A stretch of 34,714 nt of DNA. It comes from Streptomyces afghaniensis 772. Its GTDB lineage: Bacteria > Actinomycetota > Actinomycetes > Streptomycetales > Streptomycetaceae. Of the stretch, positions 23,580 through 33,071 are shown piece after piece (positions within the stretch are counted from its first letter, which is position 1; each line of letters starts with the position of its first letter). The stretch covers positions 1 to 34,714 of the forward strand of contig KE354143.1 in the NCBI GenBank assembly GCA_000415505.1, in the 5' to 3' direction. The translations under genes were made by a program, and so were the position numbers. The notes under the pieces are model-generated. The model searched no databases, was not told the DNA's origin, and saw only the letters and a program-made list of their open reading frames with translations.

Positions 23580-23653
23580 GCCTCCTTAGCTCAGATGGCC
23601 AGAGCAACGCACTTGTAATGCGTAGGTCGTCGGTTCGAATCCGACAGGGGGCT
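23580..23653 (+). tRNA. tRNA-Thr (anticodon TGT)
   Basis: A 74-nt cloverleaf. The acceptor stem GCCTCCT pairs with AGGGGGC (one G-T pair). The D arm is TTAGCTCAGATGGCCAGAGC. The anticodon stem ACGCA/TGCGT encloses loop CTTGTAA with anticodon TGT at 23614-23616. The T arm GTCGG-TTCGAAT-CCGAC is standard. The 3' CCA is not encoded. Its 3' end faces a truncated integrase gene, the usual attachment-site arrangement for integrative elements. Confidence 0.96.
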
Positions 23654-23659
23654 CCGCTG

Positions 23660-23691
23660 AACCCCAGGTCGGATTGCTCTGACCTGGGGTT
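23660..23691 (+). terminator. tRNA-Thr terminator
   Basis: An 11-bp stem, AACCCCAGGTC (23660-23670) with GACCTGGGGTT (23681-23691), and a 10-nt loop, 6 bases after the tRNA. It is followed by TTCGTCGTC. Confidence 0.8.
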
Positions 23692-23697
23692 TCGTCG

Positions 23698-24313
23698 TCA
23701 GCGGATGCGGCGGCGGCGCCGGGCGCGAGCCGCGCGGGTGTCGGCGGTCTCAGTTCTGGTCTCAGTGGGGCCCGGATCCGCGGTGGTGGGCGTGGGCACG
23801 AAGAACTCGCCCATGCGTCGCATGGCGTCCTTGGACAGGTGGGATCGGCCCTTCACGTACCGCCGGGTCTGGCTGATCTGGGTGTGTCGGAGAATCTCCA
23901 TGATCGTGGGCATGTCCACGCCCAGCTCGTTGAGGATGGTGCCGGCGGTGGCGGCTCCCGTCGTAGAGGCGGCGGTCATCGATCCCGGCCTCCTTGAGCA
24001 GCTCCTTGAATTCCTCGTAGTCGGCGCGCGGGTCGAGCGGGCGTCCGTCCGGCCGTGAGAACACGACGTCGTGCTCCTGCCACAGTTCGCCGGCGGCGGC
24101 CCGCATCTCCTCTTGCCCGGCCTTGTGCTCGTGCAGAAACGGAATGAAGACGGGCGGGATCGGGACGGCGTTCCGGCTCTTCTTGGTCTTGGGGCGGGTG
24201 AAGACGAGCCCGCCCTCCTTTCGCTGCGGGCAGGCGCTCGCATGCCTCGTGCAGGTCTTGGGGCACGGCTTCGGGCAGCCTCGCTTGTAGCTCTTGTGCC
24301 TGGCACACGACAC
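23698..24313 (-). pseudogene. Tyrosine recombinase (integrase), truncated and frameshifted
   Basis: Only the C-terminal half remains. It starts at about 24305 with a Cys-rich insertion (HKSYKRGCPKPCPKTCTRHA), then GGLVFTRPKTKKSRNAVPIP, HEHKAGQEEMRAAAGELW and FKELLKEAGIDDRRLYDG. The frame then breaks at 23942-23962, exactly where the catalytic R-H-T box should be. The end is recovered in another frame: TILNELGVDMPTIMEILRHT, then ISQTRRYVKG with the nucleophilic tyrosine, and a basic tail. The first catalytic Arg box and the N-terminal DNA-binding domain are missing. The upstream edge abuts an unrelated fragment at about 24300. It lies beside tRNA-Thr, its probable attachment site, and cannot be functional as written. 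Confidence 0.88.
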
Positions 24314-24442
24314 GGTGCTCTACAACTCGATCTACCGTGCTGATGACGAGATGTTGGCCAACACGCACGTGTACGGCATCGGGGCCTACATGGCGCCTGT
24401 GTTCCACCTGCGACGACTCCCCGGAGCTGGCCTGTTCGACAC
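24294..24442 (+). pseudogene. C-terminal fragment of an XRE regulator (DUF5919 type)
   Basis: In plus frame 3 the peptide HDTVLYNSIYRADDEMLANT, then HVYGIGAYMAPVFHLRRLPG and LFDT, matches from memory the end of DUF5919-type XRE regulators common in Streptomyces. The helix-turn-helix half is absent: the left edge is the junction with the integrase fragment at about 24300. On the right the homology stops at LFDT and coding continues in frame 2 with a different protein. It is a leftover of a deletion or recombination. Confidence 0.7.
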
Positions 24443-24613
24443 CTCTGCTTCCGCGCGCGGCCGGTCGGTGGGGAACTCCGTACGAGCAACGAGACGACGC
24501 AGGTCCGCTGGGTCGACCCAACGGACCTGACGACGTTGGACGTGCACCCCACGATGCGGCTCCGGATCGAGCACGCCCTGGACCAGACGCGCACGACTCC
24601 CTACATCGGCTGA
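24443..24613 (+). pseudogene. C-terminal fragment of a NUDIX hydrolase
   Basis: Plus frame 2 encodes LCFRARPVGGELRTSNETTQ, VRWVDPTDLTTLDVHPTMRL and RIEHALDQTRTTPYIG, ending at TGA 24611-24613. The E-T-x-x-VRWV-D-P and R-I-x-H-AL...PYIG pattern is the usual end of Streptomyces NUDIX hydrolases. The Nudix box (GX5EX7REUXEEXGU) is missing, so it is inactive. NUDIX genes are frequent cargo of actinomycete integrative elements, which fits the nearby integrase. The break from the preceding fragment is near 24440. Confidence 0.72.
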
Positions 24614-24861
24614 TGCTTGGCGGCGGCGACCCGTTCGAGCACGCGGGACGTGCAGGCGAGGATCTCTGGCTCGGCCCGGCGGATGAACTGCCCGATCAGG
24701 CTGTCCGGCCCGTACCGTCCGGCAATCTCGTAAATCCGGTCGATCGGGTTCGTGGACGTGCCGTCCGGCGTTGTGTTCATGTCGCAGTAGCAGAGCGCGT
24801 CGTTCAGGTGCGCGCTCTCGCGGGGAATCCGGAGGTCCGTTGCCGCGCAGGGCGGGGACAA
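24601..24861 (-). CDS. Small unknown protein at the end of the minus-strand cluster
   Basis: 86 residues from 24861 or 59 from the ATG at 24778-24780. The latter (MNTTPDGTSTNPIDRIYEIA) looks like a more natural start, although no clear ribosome site is seen for either. The core is GRYGPDSLIGQFIRRAEPEI and CTSRVLERVAAAKHQPM, a short helical protein with no signal or membrane segment. The stop overlaps the end of the NUDIX fragment on the other strand. I do not recognise it. It lies downstream of the radical SAM gene in the same direction. Confidence 0.5.
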   Translation of the reverse strand: MSPPCAATDLRIPRESAHLNDALCYCDMNTTPDGTSTNPIDRIYEIAGRYGPDSLIGQFIRRAEPEILACTSRVLERVAAAKHQPM

Positions 24862-25166
24862 CGTGCAGCGCTACCTCGCGTAGGGCGCGAGCTAACGCAG
24901 GAGGGGCACACAGTGAGGGGCGGGCGGCTGCGCTCACCCCTCACGCGTGTCTACGGCGCTTCGCTCTCCACCGCTTCGGTGTCGACTCGTAGGGCGTCGT
25001 CGTACTCGTTCAGCGTCTCCAGCACGCTGTTCCTGGCCGTGTCGTCGAGGCTCGCGCAGGCCTCGACCTGGTCGCATCTCCAGAAGGGAGACCCGCCCGC
25101 TCTCTCGCCACGAGGACGGGGGTGCAGAGGACGGCGGGTATCTGTGGGGCGGCCCTGGGTCGGTGG
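24862..25166 (-). other. Gap with a start-less coding-like stretch
   Basis: The radical SAM frame stays open after its own stop, from about 25166 down to TAG 24951-24953. Its last part looks coding: SPFWRCDQVEACASLDDTAR, then NSVLETLNEYDDALRVDTEA and VESEAP, acidic with G/C-ending codons. There is no ATG or suitable GTG in frame, so this is either a small gene with a damaged start or the end of a once longer protein. The remaining bases (24862-24950) hold nothing I can identify. Confidence 0.3.
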
Positions 25167-26246
25167 TCAGCCGGGATGCGGTCCGCCGGTTGCTGCCGGA
25201 ACGGCGTGCAGCCGGGTCAGCCGCGCCGTCTCGTCGTCGCGGAAGGTCGCTACTTCGCGGCAGCGCCGGCTCATCACGAATTCGCCGAGCGACAGGCACA
25301 GGTCCATGCGCTGAATGCAGACGCCGACCATGAACGGGCCGTCCATGGCGCGGTACAGCCGGACGCCGTAGTACCCCTCCTGGCAGTCGTCCGGGTTGTT
25401 GAACCGGCAGTCGGCGCACGTCTCGGGCAGGCGCACGGGCCGGATGCTCTTCGCGTACAGCGTGCGCCCGTCGGGCAGGCGGTACCGCACCCGCTGATCC
25501 GATGCCCCGGCCGTGATGATGCGGCGGACCGGCACCGCGCCCAGGCGGTCGACGACGTCCTGCATGGCGGCCAGGGAGGCGCCCCCGTCCTCCAGCGATA
25601 CGAGCATCCGGACCACGACGGAGCGGCCGTGCCGCTCGATGATGCGGAGCACGCGGTCGACGTGGCTGCGGTCGGGGATCACGATGTTGACGGAGACCTT
25701 GATGCCGTGGGCGATCGCGGTCTCGATCGTCGCGTCGAGGGCGGCCAGCTTGCGCTCGGCGACCTTCGGTGAGGCCAGACGCGGTGCTTGTACGGCGGCG
25801 AGCTCGGCCGGGGTGGTGCCGAACACGGACAGGTTGATGCGGTCAAGACCGGCTGCCGCGGCGGCGGGCAGGACCGTGGCGCCGTTCTCGCCGTTCGAGG
25901 TGAGCCCGACGGTGAGTCCGAGGCGTCGGGCGATGGTGATCAGGCCGGGCAGGTCGGGGTGCAGCGTCGGCTCACCACCGGTGAAGTGCACCTCGTTCGT
26001 CGGGAGGCTGCCGCGCACAGCGGCGAGGGCCATGGCGAAGTCGGCGTCGGCGGCGATCCGGGCGGGCAGGAAGTCGGCGCCGTTGGTGCGGAGGTAGAGG
26101 GAGACGCGTCCGGTGCTGCCCGGTGCGGCGACGGGTGTTCCTTCGTTGTGGCAGAACGAGCAGGCGAGACCGCACGCGTCGATGATTTTCACGCGCAGGG
26201 TGCGGTCCGGTTTCACTTCCACCGGCACGTCGCTCAGGTCGTGCAT
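25167..26246 (-). CDS. Radical SAM protein with C-terminal auxiliary-cluster cysteines
   Basis: 359 residues. The radical SAM motif C-x3-C-x2-C is Cys25/29/32 (DACGLACSFCHN), so it binds a [4Fe-4S] cluster and S-adenosylmethionine. The SAM-binding GGE is at 90-92 (FTGGEPTLHPD), with later barrel strands GLTSNGE and INLSVFG. The C-terminal cysteines (277, 280, 288, 310, plus 317 and 329) suggest a second MoaA/SPASM-like cluster. The reaction is unknown; MoaA itself is unlikely because its C-terminal GG is absent. The ATG follows a GAAGGGGG site. It is cytosolic and sits downstream of the CYTH gene. Confidence 0.92.
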   Translation of the reverse strand: MHDLSDVPVEVKPDRTLRVKIIDACGLACSFCHNEGTPVAAPGSTGRVSLYLRTNGADFLPARIAADADFAMALAAVRGSLPTNEVHFTGGEPTLHPDLPGLITIARRLGLTVGLTSNGENGATVLPAAAAAGLDRINLSVFGTTPAELAAVQAPRLASPKVAERKLAALDATIETAIAHGIKVSVNIVIPDRSHVDRVLRIIERHGRSVVVRMLVSLEDGGASLAAMQDVVDRLGAVPVRRIITAGASDQRVRYRLPDGRTLYAKSIRPVRLPETCADCRFNNPDDCQEGYYGVRLYRAMDGPFMVGVCIQRMDLCLSLGEFVMSRRCREVATFRDDETARLTRLHAVPAATGGPHPG

Positions 26247-26270
26247 GGTGCCCCCTTCTCCGGTCCGGTC

Positions 26271-26295
26271 CGGTCGGGGCGCGGTGCCCCGACCG
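26271..26295. terminator. Hairpin between CYTH and radical SAM genes
   Basis: A perfect 10-bp stem (CGGTCGGGGC at 26271-26280 with 26286-26295) and a 5-nt loop, in the 66-base gap before the radical SAM start. It could terminate, attenuate or protect the message. The adjacent CCGGT triplet repeat (about 26259-26274) may extend it. Confidence 0.6.
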
Positions 26296-26312
26296 GTGTC
26301 GCAGGCGCCGGC

Positions 26313-26852
26313 CTACTCGAAACGCAGGTCGGCGATGGAGTCCAGGTCGATGCCGTGGAGGCGATAGACCTTCGTGGTGTTGATCGATGTGAGCTGGTCG
26401 TGGCCGATGCCCAGCGCGGCGGCGGCCGTCCACACCTGCGCTTCGTCGTCGGCCTCGATCTCCAGATACGGCGGGATGCGGGGCCACTCGTCGACCTCCA
26501 GGCGAACGGCGCCGAGGGTGTACGAGGTGCGCCGGTTCTCCTGGTAGCTGCGCGGTGCCAGGCCGGCGAGCTCAAGCAGCGCGGCGGCCTCCTCGAAGCT
26601 GTCGACGGTGACCTCGGTCTCGTGTGTCCCGTCGACGGCGTCCGTCGTGATCTGTTTTACGCAGAGGGTGACGTCGGAGCCCGTGTCGCGTAGCCGCACC
26701 CATCGGCCGGGGACGGCCGGGATGGTGTCGTACACGTATCGCCGCATGAGGCGAGTCCCGTTCGTGCGCGTGCCACCGGCCTCGGTGATGAGCCGTGCGA
26801 TCTTCGCGGGGTCGACGTCGAGGGCTTTCGCTTCGAACTCAATACCTGCCAT
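26313..26852 (-). CDS. CYTH-domain protein (class IV adenylate cyclase / triphosphatase-like)
   Basis: 179 residues from the ATG at 26850-26852, with a CGGAG site upstream. The ExExK signature of the CYTH tunnel fold is residues 5-9 (EFEAK). Basic and acidic strand residues follow in order: RLMRRYVYDT, WVRLRDTG, VTLCVKQI, HETEVTVDSFEEA, VRLEVDEWPRIPPYLEIEAD. CYTH enzymes act on triphosphates (ATP to cAMP, thiamine or inorganic triphosphate); the CyaB-like arrangement fits best. Which substrate this one uses cannot be read from sequence. It lies 66 bases upstream of the radical SAM gene, in the same direction. Confidence 0.9.
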   Translation of the reverse strand: MAGIEFEAKALDVDPAKIARLITEAGGTRTNGTRLMRRYVYDTIPAVPGRWVRLRDTGSDVTLCVKQITTDAVDGTHETEVTVDSFEEAAALLELAGLAPRSYQENRRTSYTLGAVRLEVDEWPRIPPYLEIEADDEAQVWTAAAALGIGHDQLTSINTTKVYRLHGIDLDSIADLRFE

Positions 26853-26943
26853 GCGGTCTCCGATCGCTGGTCGCTGCTGGTGTCCAACGACCGTGCGGCG
26901 TACGGGGCCGCAGTCCGACAACGCCCACCGTTGGGGCCCCGGG

Positions 26944-27351
26944 CTACAGGCGTGTGCCGACGGCGATCGTGTCGTTGCCCGCGAGTCGCAGGATCGCCCG
27001 CAGGATGATCGGCAGACGGCGCTCGTCGAGGTCCTCCACGGAGGCCAGGGTGGTGATCCCGATGCCCATCATGGACAAGACCAGGTCGAGGAACACGCGC
27101 TGCTGCTCGTCCAGGCCGAGCCCGTACTGGAGCCCCGACAGCCCCTCGAAATCGGCGCGCGCGCCGCAGCTGGTGTCGACGACCAGAGCACGACGAACGG
27201 CCGGCATCTCCAGGATCGTCCGCTCCTCGGCGAGTGCCTGGACGGACGCCCGGGCGCGGGACGAATCGGCCGTGCGCAGCAGCTGCTTGCACAGTCTCGG
27301 CACCTCGTCGGTGACCTCGGGCGTCTCGGTCTCGGCCTCGGTGACGGTCAT
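26944..27351 (-). CDS. Unknown helical protein, coupled to the gene upstream
   Basis: 135 residues, MTVTEAETETPEVTDEVPRL onward. It is mostly helical and acidic at the N-terminus, with RASVQALAEERTILEMPAVR, FEGLSGLQYGLGLDEQQRVF and LDLVLSMMGIGITTLASVED. No signal, membrane helix or known motif was seen. Its ATG overlaps the stop of the preceding gene (ATGA at 27348-27351), which strongly indicates translational coupling and a shared complex or pathway. The 91-base gap to the CYTH gene shows no clear terminator. Confidence 0.7.
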   Translation of the reverse strand: MTVTEAETETPEVTDEVPRLCKQLLRTADSSRARASVQALAEERTILEMPAVRRALVVDTSCGARADFEGLSGLQYGLGLDEQQRVFLDLVLSMMGIGITTLASVEDLDERRLPIILRAILRLAGNDTIAVGTRL

Positions 27352-27809
27352 GCCGATGCCTCTGCTAGGCGTCGGTACCGGCCAGGGCCAAACGCGGCGG
27401 CGAGTACGGCAGGGTCAGTGAGTTCGCCCGAGCCGCCCGGGCGCGTCAGCCAGAACCGGCCGCAGGCAGGCCAGCCCGTCGGCGGGCAGTGCAGAGGCCA
27501 GCCGACCGGCTGCACTGTCACGGTCCGCAGGTCGCCCAGTTCGTCGGCGGCGTCGAGCGGCACGAGCCACCAAGCCATGTCGAGCGTCGGGTCGGCGACG
27601 ACCGGCCCACGGCGCTCGGGACGGATCCGGTTGGGTGCCTGCATGCTCGCGACGAGCGGGGCCTCAGCCGCCAGCCACGCGTTGCCGGACGGGATCGGCG
27701 CGAGCGCCTCAAGGTTCCATGCCTCGCGCACGAGGGCGGGGTGCGCGGAGCAGCCAGCGAGCCACGCGTCCCCCGCCTCGTACCGCTCGGCGCACTTCGG
27801 TAGGGCCAT
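27348..27809 (-). CDS. Unknown protein, first gene of a coupled pair
   Basis: 153 residues from the ATG at 27807-27809 (MALPKCAERYEAGDAWLAGC). Trp/Pro-rich sequence with several recognisable blocks: APIPSGNAWLAAEAPLVASM, RIRPERRGPVVADPTLDMAW, TVTVQPVGWPLHCPPTGWPA and CGRFWLTRPGGSG. The tail TDPAVLAAAFGPGRYRRLAE is also distinctive. I recall similar Streptomyces proteins beside XRE regulators but cannot name a family or function. The upstream frame to 27869 is an extension of poor quality. Three GATTGCGC repeats lie just upstream (27831-27867), likely its operator. Confidence 0.68.
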   Translation of the reverse strand: MALPKCAERYEAGDAWLAGCSAHPALVREAWNLEALAPIPSGNAWLAAEAPLVASMQAPNRIRPERRGPVVADPTLDMAWWLVPLDAADELGDLRTVTVQPVGWPLHCPPTGWPACGRFWLTRPGGSGELTDPAVLAAAFGPGRYRRLAEASA

Positions 27810-27830
27810 GACCGGGACGCTACGGAGGGT

Positions 27831-27867
27831 GATTGCGCCCCCGGGCAGCGATTGCGCGCGATTGCGC
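27831..27867. promoter_or_regulatory. GATTGCGC repeats upstream of the coupled gene pair
   Basis: Three exact copies of GATTGCGC at 27831-27838, 27850-27857 and 27860-27867. The last two start 10 bp apart. They fill the 87-base gap between the regulator gene's end and the start at 27809. A related pair lies at 29553-29570. Confidence 0.6.
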
Positions 27868-27896
27868 ACAGGGGCGGGAGGCTTGCGCCAGGTTGC

Positions 27897-28750
27897 TCAG
27901 GTGAGGTCCAGAGACGCCCTCGCGCGGCCGATCAGGCGCCGCGCTGGGGTCCCGTATTCGGCGGACTCGGCGAGCCAGTCCCACGCCCGCTCGTACAGCT
28001 GGACGTCGTCGTCACCGGTGAGCCACAGTTCCTCGCTGATGGTCTCAACGATGACGAGTCGCCGGTCGTAGATCCAGAATGCGTGCGGTGCGGTGCGGTG
28101 CGGCGCAACTGGGTGCCGAAGGGCAGGATGCCGAGTTCGATGCGCCGCTGTCCGACGAGGTTGTACAGCCGATCGAGCTGCTCGGCCATCACCTCGACAG
28201 GGCACGAGCGGTGGTACAGGGCCGCTTCGCAGACGAGGAACCGGAACGTCTTCTCCGGGTCGTACAGCGCCTCCTGACGGCGCATGCGCGTCTCGACGGC
28301 CGCCTCGGTGGTGGGCGGGATCCCGCGGAATTCGGCGTTGCTGTCGAAGATGACCCGCGCGTACTCGGGGGTCTGGAACAGGCCCGGTATGCGGGAGACC
28401 TCAAGGCCTCGCAGCAGCGTCGTGTTCTCGGTCTGACGGACGGCGATCTCCTGCCGACCGCGGTGCCCGCCCGCGAGCTGCCGGCGCCAGGAGCGGTGCC
28501 GCTGCTTCATGTCCAGGCCGGCGAGGAGTCCGTGCAGTTCCGGCTCGGCGTCCGGGCGGCCGACCGCGTTCGCCCACGCGGTCAGATCTGCGCGGGTCGG
28601 GGTCTGCTTGCCGTTCTGCAGGCGGGAGACCTTCGACGTCTGCCAGCCCAGCCTGCTGGCGATGCCCTTGCCTTCCAGACCGGCCTCGGTGCGCAGCTCC
28701 CGCAGCCGCGCGCCGAGGGCCTCGCGTGCGGTCTGGAAGTCGGTGGTCAC
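27897..28750 (-). pseudogene. XRE family regulator with DUF5753 domain, broken by a 5-bp repeat
   Basis: From GTG 28748-28750: an N-terminal helix-turn-helix (LGARLRELRTEAGLEGKGIA, SRLGWQTSKVSRLQNGKQTP), then the DUF5753 ligand-like domain (IPGLFQTPEYARVIFDSNAE, MAEQLDRLYNLVGQRRIELG, ILPFGTQL). The frame then slips at a GCACC tandem repeat (28085-28104) and would end after 58 nonsense residues. Removing one 5-bp unit restores AFWIYDRRLVIVETISEELW, LTGDDDVQLYERAWDWLAES and the natural stop at 27897. The intact protein would be about 283 residues, normal for the family. It overlaps the DUF6879 stop by four bases. Such regulators usually control the adjacent small gene. Confidence 0.88.
28085..28104. 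repeat. Five-base tandem repeat (GCGGT) inside the regulator gene
   Basis: Three perfect GCGGT units (28085-28099) and a fourth GCGGC. Losing one unit brings the two halves of the regulator back into one frame, so copy number decides whether a full protein is made. Confidence 0.85.
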
Positions 28751-29487
28751 ACTGTTGAAGCTACCCGTTTCGCGAACTCGGCTGGAGGCGCTGCGTGATG
28801 CCACGCGGCGTCCCGGACCTGGCAGGCGGAGAGCACCTCGGCAGGGTCTTCGGTGACGTACACGCCGAGGGTGGTGTCGTCCCCGTCGAACGCGAACCGG
28901 GCCACGATCTTCGAGTCGAACAGCCAGAAGTCGCAGTCGGGCAGACGCAGGGCGCATGCTTCGCTGCGGGGCAGGTACCGGATGTCTTCGCCGGCTGCGA
29001 TGTTGCTGGGTGCGCGGGCCAGCAGGAACTGCTGCCCCTGGGTGAGGGGCTCATCGGTCAGGCGGACGCGCTCGAAACGCTTGCCCTGCTCGACTTGGGT
29101 GCGGACGTTCTGCCGCCACGCGTTGGCCGGCTCGTTGGCGACGTCCTCGCCGGCAAGCCACTTCGGCCAGAGCGGGGACTGGCGGTCGGAGGCATAGCCG
29201 TGACGCGTTTCCAGCCGGAACGCGGTGTGCCGGAACTCTCGGAACAGGTGCGAGATCGAGGCGAACGGCTGGAGCTCGGGCGCAGTGGTGCGGGGCGCGT
29301 ACCGGGTCAGGAGGCTGCGGGGGACACGGACGAACGTCTCGGTCGGCTTGACGTCCCGTAGCTGCACGAGGTGCTGGGGGTCGGTCTCTCGGTCTCCCTG
29401 CACGAGGATCTCGTCTGTGCCATCGATCTCGTACAGGGTGGGACAGTCACCGTCATCGCTGGTGGTGCCGAGGAACCTGAGCGCCAT
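28747..29487 (-). CDS. DUF6879 family protein with an N-terminal extension
   Basis: 246 residues. The C-terminal two thirds (from about residue 75: FASISHLFREFRHTAFRLET, RVRLTDEPLTQGQQFLLARA, EDIRYLPRSEACALRLPDCD, FWLFDSKIVARFAFDGDD) is the DUF6879 domain that typically accompanies XRE/DUF5753 regulators in Streptomyces. The first 75 residues (MALRFLGTTSDDGDCPTLYE, IDGTDEILVQGDRETDPQHL) are often, as I recall, a separate small gene, so this looks like a fusion. The stop overlaps the regulator's GTG (GTGA), giving a coupled pair. Role unknown; a partner or effector of the regulator is likely. Confidence 0.85.
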   Translation of the reverse strand: MALRFLGTTSDDGDCPTLYEIDGTDEILVQGDRETDPQHLVQLRDVKPTETFVRVPRSLLTRYAPRTTAPELQPFASISHLFREFRHTAFRLETRHGYASDRQSPLWPKWLAGEDVANEPANAWRQNVRTQVEQGKRFERVRLTDEPLTQGQQFLLARAPSNIAAGEDIRYLPRSEACALRLPDCDFWLFDSKIVARFAFDGDDTTLGVYVTEDPAEVLSACQVRDAAWHHAAPPAEFAKRVASTV

Positions 29488-30046: not shown

Positions 30047-31138
30047 TCAGATCGGCTCCGGCCCGGGCCGTTTTCTGTTTCGGACGTCGCTGAGGGCATC
30101 GGTGCTGTCCACCCACTGGTCGATCGCGCCGGTGTCGGGCAGGGAGTGGAGGTCGGGGTTCTTGATGCGGGCGCGGAGTGCCGCCGTGAAGCGTTCCGCG
30201 TGGAGGACCTGGAACGGGCGGCTGTGGTACGGGCGGGTGGTGGGATCGACGGGGGTCGTGAGCGCCAGGTCGTTGTGGTGGGCGGCGATGGTCTCGTAGG
30301 CGTGCTCGAGGTGGTGCTCTCGGGTGTGCCAGTCGGGGGCCGCCAGCGCCGCGGTCAGGGTGGGGGTGAGCGCCGCGCCCTGGGGGGTCGCGGTGAAGGC
30401 GGTGCCGAGCCACTTGCTGTAGGGCGGGTAGCGGCGGTTCATGAGGAGGCTCAGGCGCATCAGGTCGCGGATCAGCCGGGCGGCCACGATCGCGGAGCCG
30501 AGTTCGTCGCCCACCTCGCCGCAGCGGCCTACGAAGGCCTCCTCCTGGGAGATGCGTTTCCACTGGCAGGCCAGGACGTACAGCCAGATGTCGTGCGGGT
30601 ACCAGCGCAGGGCGGTGCGGGCCCGGGCGAGCCGGTCGAGGCCGTCGTGGAAGACGGCGCCCGCGGTGACCTCGGCCAGGCGCTGGGTGGGCGTGGCCAG
30701 CCAGTCCGCCGTGGTGACGCCCTGGGCCGGGTCGAAGCCGAGCTGGTCCGTGAACCAGGTGGCGGAGTCCGTGATGTCGACGCGGTGGTGCACCGGGCCG
30801 TCGGTGCCGGTCATGACGCGGATGTCGGTGCCCGGGTCGTCGCCGGTGCGGGCGAAGTGGGTGGGGTGGCCGAGGAAGGTCTTCGGGAGGCGGCGGGAGA
30901 GGAGGGCGGTGAGGCGGGGGCCGTGGGCCTCGGCGTCTTCCGGGCGGAGGAAGAGCTGGAGGCGCGGGCCCCACTCGTGGTCGGCCGAGCGCGGGGTGTC
31001 GTAGCCGAGGACCTCGGAGCCGCTGCCGAGGCGGGCGGCGGAGTGGGGGATGCCGGGGAGGGCCTCGTCCAGGAGGGGGCGTACGGCCTCGGTGTAGAAG
31101 CGGCGGGAGAGCTCCAGGCCGGAGAGGAAGGAGGGCAT
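30047..31138 (-). CDS. DUF4037 domain-containing protein
   Basis: 363 residues. The N-terminal nucleotidyltransferase-like part has GSGSEVLGYDTPRSADHEWG and PRLQLFLRPEDAEAHG, where the GS and the two acidic residues are typical of that fold. The large helical DUF4037 region includes FTDQLGFDPAQGVTTADWLA, TALRWYPHDIWLYVLACQWK, RISQEEAFVGRCGEVGDELG and NRRYPPYSKWLGTAF. Members are presumed nucleotidyltransferases with unknown targets. It starts 3 bases after the stop of the APH-type gene, so the two are co-transcribed. The C-terminal tail is basic. The stop lies 25 bases from the endonuclease fragment's edge. Confidence 0.88.
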   Translation of the reverse strand: MPSFLSGLELSRRFYTEAVRPLLDEALPGIPHSAARLGSGSEVLGYDTPRSADHEWGPRLQLFLRPEDAEAHGPRLTALLSRRLPKTFLGHPTHFARTGDDPGTDIRVMTGTDGPVHHRVDITDSATWFTDQLGFDPAQGVTTADWLATPTQRLAEVTAGAVFHDGLDRLARARTALRWYPHDIWLYVLACQWKRISQEEAFVGRCGEVGDELGSAIVAARLIRDLMRLSLLMNRRYPPYSKWLGTAFTATPQGAALTPTLTAALAAPDWHTREHHLEHAYETIAAHHNDLALTTPVDPTTRPYHSRPFQVLHAERFTAALRARIKNPDLHSLPDTGAIDQWVDSTDALSDVRNRKRPGPEPI

Positions 31139-31141
31139 GGG

Positions 31142-32065
31142 TCAGGCGGTGCGGTCGCGCAGGCGGCGGGCGATCTCGAGTTGGTCGTCGTCCAGGGGGC
31201 GGCCGTCCTCTAGGTCCCACAGGGCGTTCTGGAGGAGGCGGCCGAGGGTCCAGGCGCGGGCGCGGGGGCGGTCCAGGGCGAGGACGTCGGTCATGGCGTC
31301 GAAGCGCCAGAGGATGTCGTCGGGGTCGTAGCGGTTGTCGATGGCCGGCCACAGTTCGAAGCCGGGGTCGCCGGCGAGGGGCTTGGGGTCGATGGCGAGC
31401 CAGGGGGCGCGGTCGGAGGCGAGGACGTTCTCGTCGTGGAGGTCCCAGTGGAGGAGCCGGTCGCCCGGCTCGTCGACGACCTCGCGTACGGCGGCGGCGC
31501 AGTCGGCGACGAGGCGGCGGGCCTCGGGGTCGGGGATGCGGTCGAGTGCCCACGGGGTCCGGTCCAGCATGGCCCGGGCGATGTCGCCGAGGCGGCGCAG
31601 GCCGGGCGGGGCGGGGAAGGAGGTGAGGTGGGCGAGGAGTTCGGCGATGGTGACGACGGCCTGGTGGGGGTCCGGGACGTGGGACAGCATCCGGGTCTCG
31701 TCGAGGCGTTCCAGCAGCATGGTGCCGGTGGGCTCGTCGTGGTCGAGGAGACGGACGGCTCCGTCGCCGTCCCAGGCGCGCAGCGCCACCGGTTCGCCTT
31801 CGCTCTCCTCGTCGAGGAGCTGGAGCTTGAGGACCGCGGGGCCGCCGTCGGCGCGGACGACCGGGAGGACCAGGGCGGACACGCCGTGCATGGGCGGCCC
31901 GTCGGGCTTCAGTCCCCAGCGGTCGAGGAAGCCGGCCGTCAGGTCCGGCAGTTCCTCGATGAAGGCGCGGCCCGCCTCGCCGTTGTACTTCTCCTGTGAC
32001 GCTGCCAGTTCCCGGGGGATGTCGATCACTTTCGGCACGGTAGTGGGGCGGGCCGGACGGGTCAT
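31142..32065 (-). CDS. Aminoglycoside phosphotransferase / hydroxyurea-type kinase family (APH(6)-like)
   Basis: 307 residues from the ATG at 32063-32065. Kinase-like fold: ATP-lysine in GGPAVLKLQLLDEESEGEPV, hinge MLLERLDETRML, catalytic H-x-D-x4-N in LLHWDLHDENVLAS and the metal aspartate in AIDPKPLAGDPGFELWP. The last motif is typical of streptomycin 6-kinase relatives. It may phosphorylate an aminoglycoside or an endogenous small molecule; resistance cannot be inferred from sequence. It lies 25 bases downstream of the quinone oxidoreductase stop and is coupled to the DUF4037 gene. The ribosome site is weak. Confidence 0.88.
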   Translation of the reverse strand: MTRPARPTTVPKVIDIPRELAASQEKYNGEAGRAFIEELPDLTAGFLDRWGLKPDGPPMHGVSALVLPVVRADGGPAVLKLQLLDEESEGEPVALRAWDGDGAVRLLDHDEPTGTMLLERLDETRMLSHVPDPHQAVVTIAELLAHLTSFPAPPGLRRLGDIARAMLDRTPWALDRIPDPEARRLVADCAAAVREVVDEPGDRLLHWDLHDENVLASDRAPWLAIDPKPLAGDPGFELWPAIDNRYDPDDILWRFDAMTDVLALDRPRARAWTLGRLLQNALWDLEDGRPLDDDQLEIARRLRDRTA

Positions 32066-32090
32066 GTGAATTCTCGGGCAGGGAGTCGCC

Positions 32091-33071
32091 TCAGGGCTCC
32101 AGGACCACCTTTCCCGTCGTGCCACGGCTCTCCAGCGCCCGGTGCGCGGCCGCGGCCTCGCTCAGCGGGAAGCGCTGTACGGCCGGGGTGAGGCGGCCGG
32201 CGGCGGCCTCGGCGAGGGCGCGCAGTTCGAGGGTGCGTACGGGGTCGGGGCCGCCTGCCTTCTGGAGCATCACGGGGCCGAGGACCTGCTCGGAGACGCC
32301 CTCGACGAGGTAGGGACCGCCGTCCTGGATTCCTTCCGCGGACCAGCCGAAGACGACGTGCTTGCCGCCGGGGCCGAGCAGGGCGACGGCCTCGCGGGCC
32401 ACCTCGCCGCCGACGCCGTCGAAGACCACGGTCGCGGCCCGGCCGCCGAGGTGGGCACGGACCTTCGCGGGCCACGCCGGGTCCTTGTAGTCGACGGCGA
32501 GATCGGCGCCGCCCGCCTGCACCCGGGCGACCTTCTCCGGCCCGCCCGCGAGGCCGACGACGGTGGCGCCGGCGTTCTTGGCGTACTGCACGAGGAGCGT
32601 GCCGATGCCCCCGGCCGCGGCCGGGACGACGGCCACCGAGTCGGGGCCGAGCTCGGCGAACTGGAGGATCCCCATCGTCGTACGGCCCGTGCCGATCATG
32701 GCGACGGCCTCGGCGAAGTCCAGGTTCCGCGGGATCTCGTGCAGTCGTGCGACCTCGGTGACGGCCAGTTCGGCGTAGCCGCCGGGGACGAAGCCGAGGT
32801 GGGCGACGACCCGCTTGCCGAGCCACAGGTCCGCGACGCCCTCGCCCAGGGACTCGACGACGCCGGCGACCTCGCGGCCCGGGATGGTGGGCAGCGGCGT
32901 CGGCTCGGGTGCCGGTCCCTGTCCGCCCTCACGCAGGGCGGTGTCCAGGAGGTGGACGCCCGCCGCCCGTACGGCGACACGGACCTGGCCGGGGCCCGGC
33001 CGCGGGTCCTCGACCTGCTCGTAGGTGAGGTTCTCGGCCGGGCCGTAGGCGTGCAGGCGGATGGCGTGCAT
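32091..33071 (-). CDS. Zinc-independent quinone oxidoreductase (MDR family), SoxR-regulated
   Basis: 326 residues from ATG 33069-33071, with a GAGGAG site upstream. MDR fold: an N-terminal GroES-like domain (PGQVRVAVRAAGVHLLDTAL, IPGREVAGVVESLGEGVADL) and an NADPH-binding Rossmann domain (AAAGGIGTLLVQYAKNAGAT, VVFDGVGGEVAREAVALLGP). No structural zinc cysteines are seen. It should reduce quinones or similar redox-active compounds using NADPH. It is the apparent counterpart of S. coelicolor SCO4266, a SoxR target. A SoxR box lies between its -35 and -10. The downstream APH and DUF4037 genes may share the transcript. Confidence 0.92.
   Translation of the reverse strand: MHAIRLHAYGPAENLTYEQVEDPRPGPGQVRVAVRAAGVHLLDTALREGGQGPAPEPTPLPTIPGREVAGVVESLGEGVADLWLGKRVVAHLGFVPGGYAELAVTEVARLHEIPRNLDFAEAVAMIGTGRTTMGILQFAELGPDSVAVVPAAAGGIGTLLVQYAKNAGATVVGLAGGPEKVARVQAGGADLAVDYKDPAWPAKVRAHLGGRAATVVFDGVGGEVAREAVALLGPGGKHVVFGWSAEGIQDGGPYLVEGVSEQVLGPVMLQKAGGPDPVRTLELRALAEAAAGRLTPAVQRFPLSEAAAAHRALESRGTTGKVVLEP

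What the first reader, a model, noticed from the sequence alone, without database searches (positions are those of the whole stretch)
24601..29487. Minus-strand cluster combining a radical SAM enzyme, a CYTH protein, two coupled unknown proteins and an XRE/DUF6879 pair
Seven same-direction genes with overlaps (GTGA at 28747, ATGA at 27348) and short gaps lie in accessory DNA beside a tRNA. The set mixes a radical SAM protein with auxiliary-cluster cysteines, a CYTH triphosphate-binding protein and two unknown families under what looks like one regulator. Coupling suggests one process, perhaps making or degrading a modified nucleotide signal. I know of no described system with this combination; the function is inference.
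Basis: partly seen in the sequence, partly recalled or inferred. Interest (0 to 1): 0.75.

Follow-up and report, generated by a model that had tools for sequence, protein, structure and literature searches.

The report
Radical SAM–CYTH enzyme pair in actinobacteria
Two neighbouring genes in this actinobacterial cluster, a radical SAM enzyme and a triphosphate-binding CYTH enzyme, form a mobile two-enzyme cassette found again in other bacteria and phage contigs and sometimes fused into one protein, so they very probably work together, most likely to make and control an altered nucleotide, while the other genes of the cluster are neighbours or wreckage.

Summary
The core is the adjacent CYTH (26313-26852) and MoaA-like radical SAM (25167-26246). 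In 78 of 80 homologous loci, CYTH sequence sits beside the rSAM on the same strand (2 of the 78 disrupted), in both gene orders; four proteins are natural rSAM-CYTH fusions (three changes on the tree). The pair is patchy (6 of 394 class genomes, the window's own included), reaches Bacillota, lies in four viral contigs, and usually has an XRE-type regulator nearby (52 of 80 loci within 4.5 kb, 2 of 80 at 4.5-9 kb). DUF6879-XRE-U173-U135 is a separate module that also occurs without the pair; the XRE is frameshifted here. The seventh "gene" is an HD-hydrolase remnant beside NUDIX, regulator and integrase remnants at a tRNA-Thr. Best explanation: the rSAM modifies a nucleoside or nucleotide (nearest solved relatives AbmM, MoaA, BlsE) and CYTH processes the triphosphate, analogous to thmA/thmC of 4'-thiothymidine. 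The pairing is shown; the chemistry is inferred. My searches of open PMC papers found none describing the pair.

The parts
25167..26246 (-). Radical SAM enzyme (359 aa), core of the cassette; CxxxCxxC 'CGLACSFCHNEGTP', GGEP, and five C-terminal Cys C277-x2-C280-x7-C288-x21-C310-x6-C317
   Evidence: PF04055 56.2 bits; C25, C29, C32, C277, C288, C310 in 65 of 65 aligned homologues, C280 in 64, C317 in 61; AF2 pLDDT 87.3, pTM 0.88; best PDB matches MoaA by Foldseek and AbmM by sequence profile
26313..26852 (-). CYTH / triphosphate tunnel-type enzyme (179 aa from ATG 26852), core of the cassette
   Evidence: PF01928 27.9 bits, cut-off 23.2; R53, R55, K66, E78, E80, R108, D121, E131, E133 in 47 of 47, E5, E7, R38 in 46 of 47, K9 in 45 of 47
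26944..27351 (-). U135, unknown protein; part of the separate DUF6879-XRE-U173-U135 module
   Evidence: no family; 3 of 120 genomes including the window's own, beside U173 in G007 and G067
27348..27809 (-). U173 (153 aa from ATG 27809), unknown protein; same separate module; overlaps U135 by ATGA
   Evidence: no family above cut-off; 12 of 120 genomes including the window's own; DUF6879 upstream on the same strand, 944-989 bp away, at 9 of 15 places
27897..28750 (-). XRE/DUF5753 regulator, frameshifted here at a CGCAC tandem repeat
   Evidence: DUF5753 profile positions 13-118 in frame 27932-28750 and 114-177 in frame 27897-28205, searched as two pieces; single 282-aa frames in L039 and L065
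28747..29487 (-). DUF6879 protein (246 aa), partner of the XRE
   Evidence: PF21806 174.5 bits; GTGA overlap with the XRE
24601..24861 (-).
   Evidence: tblastn 59.7%, E 3e-18 to the L148 HD protein residues 123-184 of 187; PF01966 in the L148 protein
24449..24610 (+). NUDIX hydrolase C-terminal remnant
   Evidence: tblastn 43%, E 9e-7 to the last 52 residues of a 205-aa NUDIX frame of L148; called NUDIX by eye from that frame
24306..24455 (+). XRE/DUF5919 regulator C-terminal remnant
   Evidence: tblastn 46%, E 2e-9 to residues 208-257 of the 281-aa L161 protein; PF19319 24.3 bits, cut-off 23.5, in that protein
23762..24313 (-). Probable tyrosine integrase fragment beside the tRNA
   Evidence: PF00589 E 0.048, 13.9 bits, cut-off 27.1; position next to the tRNA
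23580..23655 (+). tRNA-Thr (TGT), possible integration site
   Evidence: ARAGORN; no repeat of 13 bp or more of 23580-23739 elsewhere in the window

Best explanation
The cluster holds a two-enzyme cassette, radical SAM plus CYTH, next to an unrelated regulatory module and the wreckage of a mobile element. Shown: the two enzymes are a conserved, co-inherited, sometimes fused pair on accessory and phage-associated DNA with an XRE-type regulator often nearby. Inferred: the rSAM uses SAM and an auxiliary iron-sulphur cluster to alter the sugar or base of a nucleoside or nucleotide (an AbmM/MoaA-like reaction), and the CYTH enzyme binds the triphosphate form of the product in its tunnel and hydrolyses it, which protects the producing cell (as ThmC does for 4'-thiothymidine). 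The product would be a nucleotide antimetabolite, made under control of the nearby regulator.
For: Pairing: 78 of 80 loci with both orders (37 CYTH-rSAM, 41 rSAM-CYTH including 3 fusions), a further fusion in viral contig L120; the fusions need 3 changes on the rSAM tree; rSAM and CYTH distance matrices correlate (r 0.66 over 72 loci, best of 2000 permutations 0.13). Nucleotide link: best PDB profile match is AbmM 8wm2 (E 2.3e-15) sharing the 'SFCHNEG-P' motif, then MoaA and BlsE; Foldseek ranks MoaA and then AbmM first. CYTH keeps its charged tunnel residues and matches archaeal CYTH structures, 1yem (E 2e-12) and the triphosphate tunnel metalloenzyme Saci_0718 (E 2.6e-11) first. A parallel operon in same-genus genomes joins a second rSAM, a methyltransferase and the same CYTH family (12 of the 23 lower-scoring CYTH loci fetched, one with the rSAM in two pieces); a kinase frame was read in L161 and in the related arrangement of L133. 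Precedent: thmA (rSAM), thmB (nucleoside kinase) and thmC (NTPase, gives resistance when expressed alone) make 4'-thiothymidine (PMC12691670; abstract, section 7 and passages seen). Asymmetry: among 21 closest-type CYTH places (240 bits or more) have an intact rSAM of this family beside them, 1 is cut by a contig end, 2 have a broken rSAM, 2 a short remnant (one of them weak, E 2e-4), 2 a different rSAM, 8 none; the 8 unbroken rSAMs of this family seen each have a CYTH beside them.
Against: No activity was measured and no substrate is known. CYTH enzymes include cyclases and inorganic triphosphatases (recalled), so an NTP substrate is not assured. rSAM identity to AbmM and MoaA is only about 20% and scores are below the NCBIfam cut-offs shown. 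Against the antidote idea, L047 and L053 have a full-length rSAM frame and a disrupted CYTH, with no other CYTH copy found in their genomes, while L056 and L062 have a frameshifted rSAM and an unbroken CYTH: decay is not one-sided in the rSAM-selected set. I saw no kinase or exporter constant beside the pair. L113 lacks a nearby CYTH and L108 has it 8.4 kb away.
Confidence: 0.5

Rival explanations
1. Intracellular anti-phage cassette (overlaps with the best explanation in its chemistry): like prokaryotic viperins, the rSAM makes a chain-terminating or toxic nucleotide that blocks phage replication, and CYTH limits self-harm. Prophages carry it as cargo against competing phages.
For: PADLOC pVip profile matches the rSAM core (50.8 bits, E 3.7e-14); cassette in four viral contigs, two with clear phage genes around it (L119: tail spike and integrase; L120: Dit, endolysin, then fused cassette), plus L121 and L170; patchy distribution (6 of 394).
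Against: NCBIfam viperin model 37.9 bits, cut-off 180; PADLOC matches near the pair (52 families in 150 genes) do not exceed those farther off (51 families in 149 genes); no nucleotide kinase in the cassette; no phage test.
Confidence: 0.25
2. Signalling system: the CYTH is a class IV-type cyclase that turns an rSAM-modified NTP into a cyclic messenger sensed by the XRE-type regulator nearby.
For: The CYTH family contains class IV adenylyl cyclases (recalled); XRE-type regulators sit near the pair in 52 of 80 loci.
Against: cyaB equivalog score 19.6 bits, cut-off 57.95; the regulator types differ between loci (NsdA-like 24, XRE-DUF5753 19, two others 6 and 5), which argues against one ligand; no effector gene looks constant.
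Confidence: 0.12
3. CYTH is an obligatory biosynthetic step (supplies or trims the rSAM's substrate), not an immunity enzyme; the product may be a cofactor or small metabolite rather than an antimetabolite.
For: Fusions and conserved adjacency fit sequential steps.
Against: The same CYTH subfamily often stands without this rSAM (8 of 21 places with none, 2 with a different rSAM).
Confidence: 0.2
4. One reading: all seven genes form one nucleotide-signal system.
For: Same strand, short gaps; the order DUF6879-XRE-U173-U135-CYTH-rSAM recurs in L039 and L065.
Against: U173 and U135 beside the pair only in those two of 80 loci, and found elsewhere with DUF6879 and without the pair; the seventh gene is a remnant; the XRE is frameshifted.
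Confidence: 0.05

Closest known systems
thmA-thmB-thmC, 4'-thiothymidine cluster of Photorhabdus asymbiotica (PMC12691670)
   Same: Minimal cassette of a radical SAM enzyme with a nucleotide-hydrolysing partner, the same genes together in varying surroundings; thmC alone gives self-resistance (section 7).
   Different: No kinase in the window cassette; whether ThmA or ThmC is homologous was not tested (sequences not at hand); different phylum; no product known here.
AbmM, radical SAM enzyme of albomycin biosynthesis (PDB 8wm2)
   Same: Best solved relative by sequence profile; CxxxCxxCHNEGxP cluster motif; acts in nucleoside biosynthesis (PMC12691670 passages).
   Different: About 20% identity; as far as I recall AbmM belongs to a large siderophore-nucleoside cluster without a CYTH partner.
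MoaA, GTP 3',8-cyclase
   Same: Fold and rSAM core; highest NCBIfam score (71.4 bits) and top Foldseek matches.
   Different: Far below the MoaA cut-offs (325.25 and 284.05 bits); five conserved C-terminal Cys; no conserved Gly-Gly tail.
Prokaryotic viperin (pVip)
   Same: rSAM core; nucleotide chemistry as a model (recalled).
   Different: 37.9 bits, cut-off 180; C-terminal Cys-rich part; CYTH partner.
Class IV adenylyl cyclase CyaB / triphosphate tunnel metalloenzymes
   Same: CYTH family, conserved charged tunnel residues.
   Different: Below the cyaB cut-off (19.6 against 57.95 bits); adjacent or fused rSAM in most rSAM-bearing loci.

Membership tests
CYTH superfamily (PF01928) | Profile score above the curated cut-off and ExExK-type charged tunnel residues (motif recalled) | tested here: met
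   27.9 bits, cut-off 23.2; E5 and E7 46 of 47, K9 45 of 47, R53, R55, K66, E78, E80, R108, D121, E131, E133 47 of 47
Class IV adenylate cyclase (TIGR00318 cyaB equivalog) | Score above the equivalog cut-off | tested here: not met
   19.6 bits, cut-off 57.95
Class IV adenylate cyclase (TIGR00318 cyaB equivalog) | Makes cAMP from ATP | not testable with these tools
   needs an enzyme assay
Radical SAM superfamily (PF04055) | CxxxCxxC motif and profile above the cut-off | tested here: met
   56.2 bits, cut-off 29.5; C25, C29, C32 in 65 of 65
MoaA (TIGR02666/TIGR02668) | Score above the equivalog cut-off | tested here: not met
   71.4 against 325.25 and 57 against 284.05 bits
MoaA (TIGR02666/TIGR02668) | C-terminal Gly-Gly tail (recalled) | tested here: not met
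   GG near the end only in the window protein of the five aligned
Viperin (NF038283) | Score above the equivalog cut-off | tested here: not met
   37.9 bits, cut-off 180; the best PADLOC pVip match covers only profile 4-161 of 257
thmABC-type nucleoside-analogue cassette | rSAM beside a nucleotide-hydrolysing partner | tested here: inconclusive
   rSAM beside CYTH in 78 of 80 loci; CYTH activity unknown
thmABC-type nucleoside-analogue cassette | Nucleoside kinase (thmB) in the cassette | tested here: not met
   none within the window cluster; a kinase frame was read beside rSAM-B in L133 and L161 (family search of the L133 one)
thmABC-type nucleoside-analogue cassette | Homology of the rSAM to ThmA | not tested
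   ThmA sequence not at hand
AbmM-like sulphur-for-oxygen swapping rSAM | FeS cluster donates sulphur to a nucleoside sugar | not testable with these tools
   C-terminal Cys set conserved; chemistry needs an assay

The most novel reading that the evidence does not exclude
The rSAM-CYTH pair, including single-chain fusions and phage-borne copies, is an undescribed self-contained nucleotide-weapon module: one half makes a toxic nucleotide analogue, the other destroys it in its triphosphate form, and different radical SAM enzymes plug into the same CYTH antidote. It would be used against phages or rival bacteria and would mark a new route to nucleoside antibiotics.
Probability: 0.3. Interest if true: 0.87.

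Novelty: new variant of a known kind. Interest (0 to 1): 0.68.

Why it matters
If the reading is right, a two-gene (or one-gene) cassette spread over actinobacteria, some Bacillota and phage contigs makes and controls an unknown altered nucleotide. That gives compact, testable starting points for new nucleoside antibiotics or anti-phage compounds, and for a CYTH role in self-protection. Even without the mechanism, fusions and swapped gene orders link two enzyme superfamilies for which I found no described joint system in the papers searched here.

Tried and rejected
One seven-gene system: rejected. MoaA, viperin or CyaB membership: rejected on curated cut-offs. Defence-island context: PADLOC matches near the pair (52 families in 150 genes) do not exceed those farther away (51 families in 149 genes). 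Plasmid and phage records: no rSAM relative at E 1e-20 (plasmids) or 1e-10 (phages); CYTH none in phages at 1e-6 and one Rhodococcus conjugative plasmid at 52.3%, without an annotated radical SAM in the 12.5 kb shown, whose gene table may be incomplete. Element border: no repeat of 13 bp or more of the tRNA-Thr region elsewhere in the window. Decay asymmetry as proof of an antidote: not clear in the 80-locus set. Papers: searches for CYTH, class IV cyclase or triphosphate tunnel enzyme with radical SAM gave no paper on the pair; the one hit (PMC10473537, search listing only) is a report on a Vibrio phage. A second structural aligner was not available.

Limits: the genome scan kept 80 of 123 relatives and was seeded by rSAM N-terminal motifs, so it under-samples loci with a broken rSAM. 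Genes in loci were called by my own simple scorer, which misses and misplaces some genes; the regulator counts rest on it, and several loci are cut short by contig ends, so the 4.5-9 kb band is under-sampled. The near and far gene sets are random samples, 150 of 281 and 150 of 371 genes, from 68 of the 80 loci; from the far sample I left out one gene before aligning, L108:19501-20034, because it is a CYTH, leaving 149. The alignments A5 and A6 of unrelated proteins served only to pass many proteins to the family search, which lists only the 25 commonest families. The tree (quick method, 81 rows) left out L056, L062 and L067. The 21-place CYTH count leaves out the 28 further distinct places under 240 bits; of these, 23 lower-scoring ones were fetched and G102 was not. 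One search stopped with an error before its search and was redone.

Full report
What is in the window. Searches show the minus-strand genes at the stated coordinates, with the GTGA and ATGA overlaps. Pfam names DUF6879, XRE/DUF5753, CYTH and radical SAM; two proteins (U173, U135) have no Pfam family above cut-off and no NCBIfam or PADLOC match. The XRE is split over two frames at a CGCAC repeat, while L039 and L065 hold single 282-aa frames. The ORF at 24601-24861 holds the C-terminal end of an HD-domain hydrolase, followed by C-terminal remnants of a NUDIX gene and an XRE/DUF5919 regulator and a probable integrase fragment next to tRNA-Thr. In two same-genus genomes (L148, L161) the HD and NUDIX genes, and in L161 the DUF5919 gene, lie close together upstream of a related CYTH operon.

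The conserved unit is CYTH plus radical SAM. In one search, 181 of 199 genomes had some rSAM match, but close relatives (E below 1e-30) were in 7 genomes, the window's own included. In 7 of 8 loci fetched from the other six, a CYTH relative lay beside the rSAM, in either order (the exception is L038, whose rSAM is broken). A scan of genome contigs kept 80 of 123 relatives, from Streptomyces, many other actinobacteria and Thermoactinomycetaceae (Bacillota). In 78 of 80, CYTH sequence lies beside the rSAM on the same strand: 37 with CYTH first, 41 with rSAM first, three of these fused into one frame (L085 and L092 562 aa, L109 548 aa); a fourth fusion is in viral contig L120 (551 aa). Exceptions: L108 has its CYTH 8.4 kb away; L113 has none in the locus but its genome has two. 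Two of the 78 CYTH genes are disrupted: L047 by an insertion of about 1.7 kb, L053 by an in-frame stop. On the rSAM tree the fusions need 3 changes and the three-state arrangement (two orders, fused) 4. rSAM and CYTH distances correlate (r 0.66 over 72 loci, viral contigs included; maximum of 2000 permutations 0.13). At E 1e-40 the rSAM family occurs in 6 of 394 genomes of the class, the window's own included.

Neighbourhood. Pfam on genes near the pair (under 2.6 kb away, 150 of 281) against genes farther off (over 4.5 kb, 149 of 371) gives HTH_31 22 against 3, DUF5753 11 against 2, HTH_3 10 against 2; DUF6879 6, HATPase_c_2 9 and NUDIX 6 near and not among the 25 commonest families listed for the far set. 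By my gene clusters an XRE-type regulator lies within 4.5 kb in 52 of 80 loci and at 4.5-9 kb in 2 of 80; the commonest type (24 loci) matches the NsdA family in the one member scanned (L082). DUF6879 sequence occurs in 16 of 80 loci in 1.49 Mb. In the window's genome and 36 same-genus genomes tallies 137 DUF6879 matches, about 3.7 a genome; at roughly 8.5 Mb each, fewer than one would be expected in 1.49 Mb (a rough comparison: not all 80 loci are of that genus, and the two searches differ).

The other module. U173 was found in 12 of 120 genomes and U135 in 3 of 120, the window's own included. In the nine genomes covered by both, 9 of 15 U173 places have DUF6879 upstream on the same strand with a gap of 944-989 bp, room for one XRE gene (the list is cut off, so this is a lower bound). 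In G007 U135 follows U173, and that genome shows no CYTH match at 1e-15 and only weak generic rSAM matches. So DUF6879-XRE-U173(-U135) is its own module.

Mobile DNA. L119 has tail and tail-spike genes on one side and a phage integrase on the other; L120 has Dit and an endolysin upstream, then a regulator and the fused cassette. L121 lies in a 122-kb viral contig with tail-fibre-like and RNA-binding protein matches. L170 holds an adjacent CYTH and rSAM; a nearby peptidase looks to me like an endolysin, by eye only. L168 has a CYTH without a detectable rSAM.

The same CYTH with other partners. CYTH relatives were found in 27 of 199 genomes at 1e-15 and 21 of 394 at 1e-25. I fetched 36 loci. In 12 of the 23 lower-scoring CYTH loci fetched there is an operon of a second radical SAM (rSAM-B; in L158 in two pieces), a gap of about 550 bp, a methyltransferase and CYTH; 4 more have the methyltransferase alone, and 7 neither. 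In L161, and in L133 (a higher-scoring CYTH with rSAM-B and methyltransferase), that gap holds a P-loop kinase frame; the L133 one gives weak thymidylate-kinase matches. Of 21 closest-type CYTH places, 6 have the intact rSAM, 1 is cut by a contig end (G073), 2 have a broken rSAM (G023, G026), 2 a short remnant (one locus each in G351 and G395, the latter weak), 2 have rSAM-B (G124, G126) and 8 none.

Chemistry. The rSAM keeps C25, C29, C32 and C277, C288, C310 in 65 of 65 aligned homologues, C280 in 64 and C317 in 61. An AF2 model (pLDDT 87.3, pTM 0.88) matches MoaA and then AbmM first in the PDB (TM about 0.5-0.6). By sequence profile AbmM 8wm2 (E 2.3e-15) leads, sharing the SFCHNEG-P motif, then MoaA and BlsE. 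The CYTH keeps the charged tunnel residues and matches archaeal CYTH structures, 1yem and Saci_0718 first. Neither passes the NCBIfam cut-offs for MoaA, viperin or CyaB.

Mechanism. The common denominator is a nucleotide carrying a triphosphate. The closest working precedent is thmA-C: in PMC12691670 (abstract, section 7 and passages seen) a radical SAM enzyme, a nucleoside kinase and a nucleoside triphosphatase make 4'-thiothymidine, the triphosphatase alone gives resistance, and AbmM is said to swap oxygen for sulphur using its FeS cluster. I propose that the rSAM makes a nucleotide analogue and CYTH hydrolyses its triphosphate form. Pairing, fusions, regulator enrichment and phage carriage are shown; substrate, product and direction of CYTH action are inferred. 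Results against: decay is not one-sided in the 80-locus set, PADLOC shows no defence enrichment, and no kinase is part of the window cassette.

Literature. Searches on CYTH, class IV cyclase or triphosphate tunnel enzyme together with radical SAM and on CYTH with phage defence or radical SAM with Nudix and prophage gave no paper on the pair. They cover only the open-licence PMC library.

Noticed in passing
L133, L138, L139, L141, L145, L147, L148, L149, L158, L160, L161, L165, L166: A second conserved arrangement: a different radical SAM (about 300 aa), methyltransferase and the same CYTH family, with a kinase frame between rSAM and methyltransferase where read (L133, L161) and HAD, NUDIX and HD genes nearby in L148 and L161. 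A good candidate for its own study.
   Followed up: partly
window 23762-24861: Stack of truncated genes (probable integrase, XRE/DUF5919, NUDIX, HD) beside tRNA-Thr: a decayed integrative element.
   Followed up: partly
window 27897-28750: XRE/DUF5753 gene frameshifted at a CGCAC tandem repeat; real decay, phase variation or assembly error cannot be told apart.
   Followed up: partly
L119, L120, L121, L170: rSAM-CYTH cassettes in viral contigs, in L119 between tail genes and integrase and in L120 downstream of the endolysin; L120 is a single-chain fusion.
   Followed up: partly
L134, L151, L153: CYTH genes without the radical SAM but with a NUDIX hydrolase close by, and an XRE gene nearby in L134 and L151.
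   Followed up: no
window 30047-31138 and 31142-32125: DUF4037 protein next to an apparent kinase-like protein (by eye); relatives of the first lie in L056 and of the second in L037.
   Followed up: no
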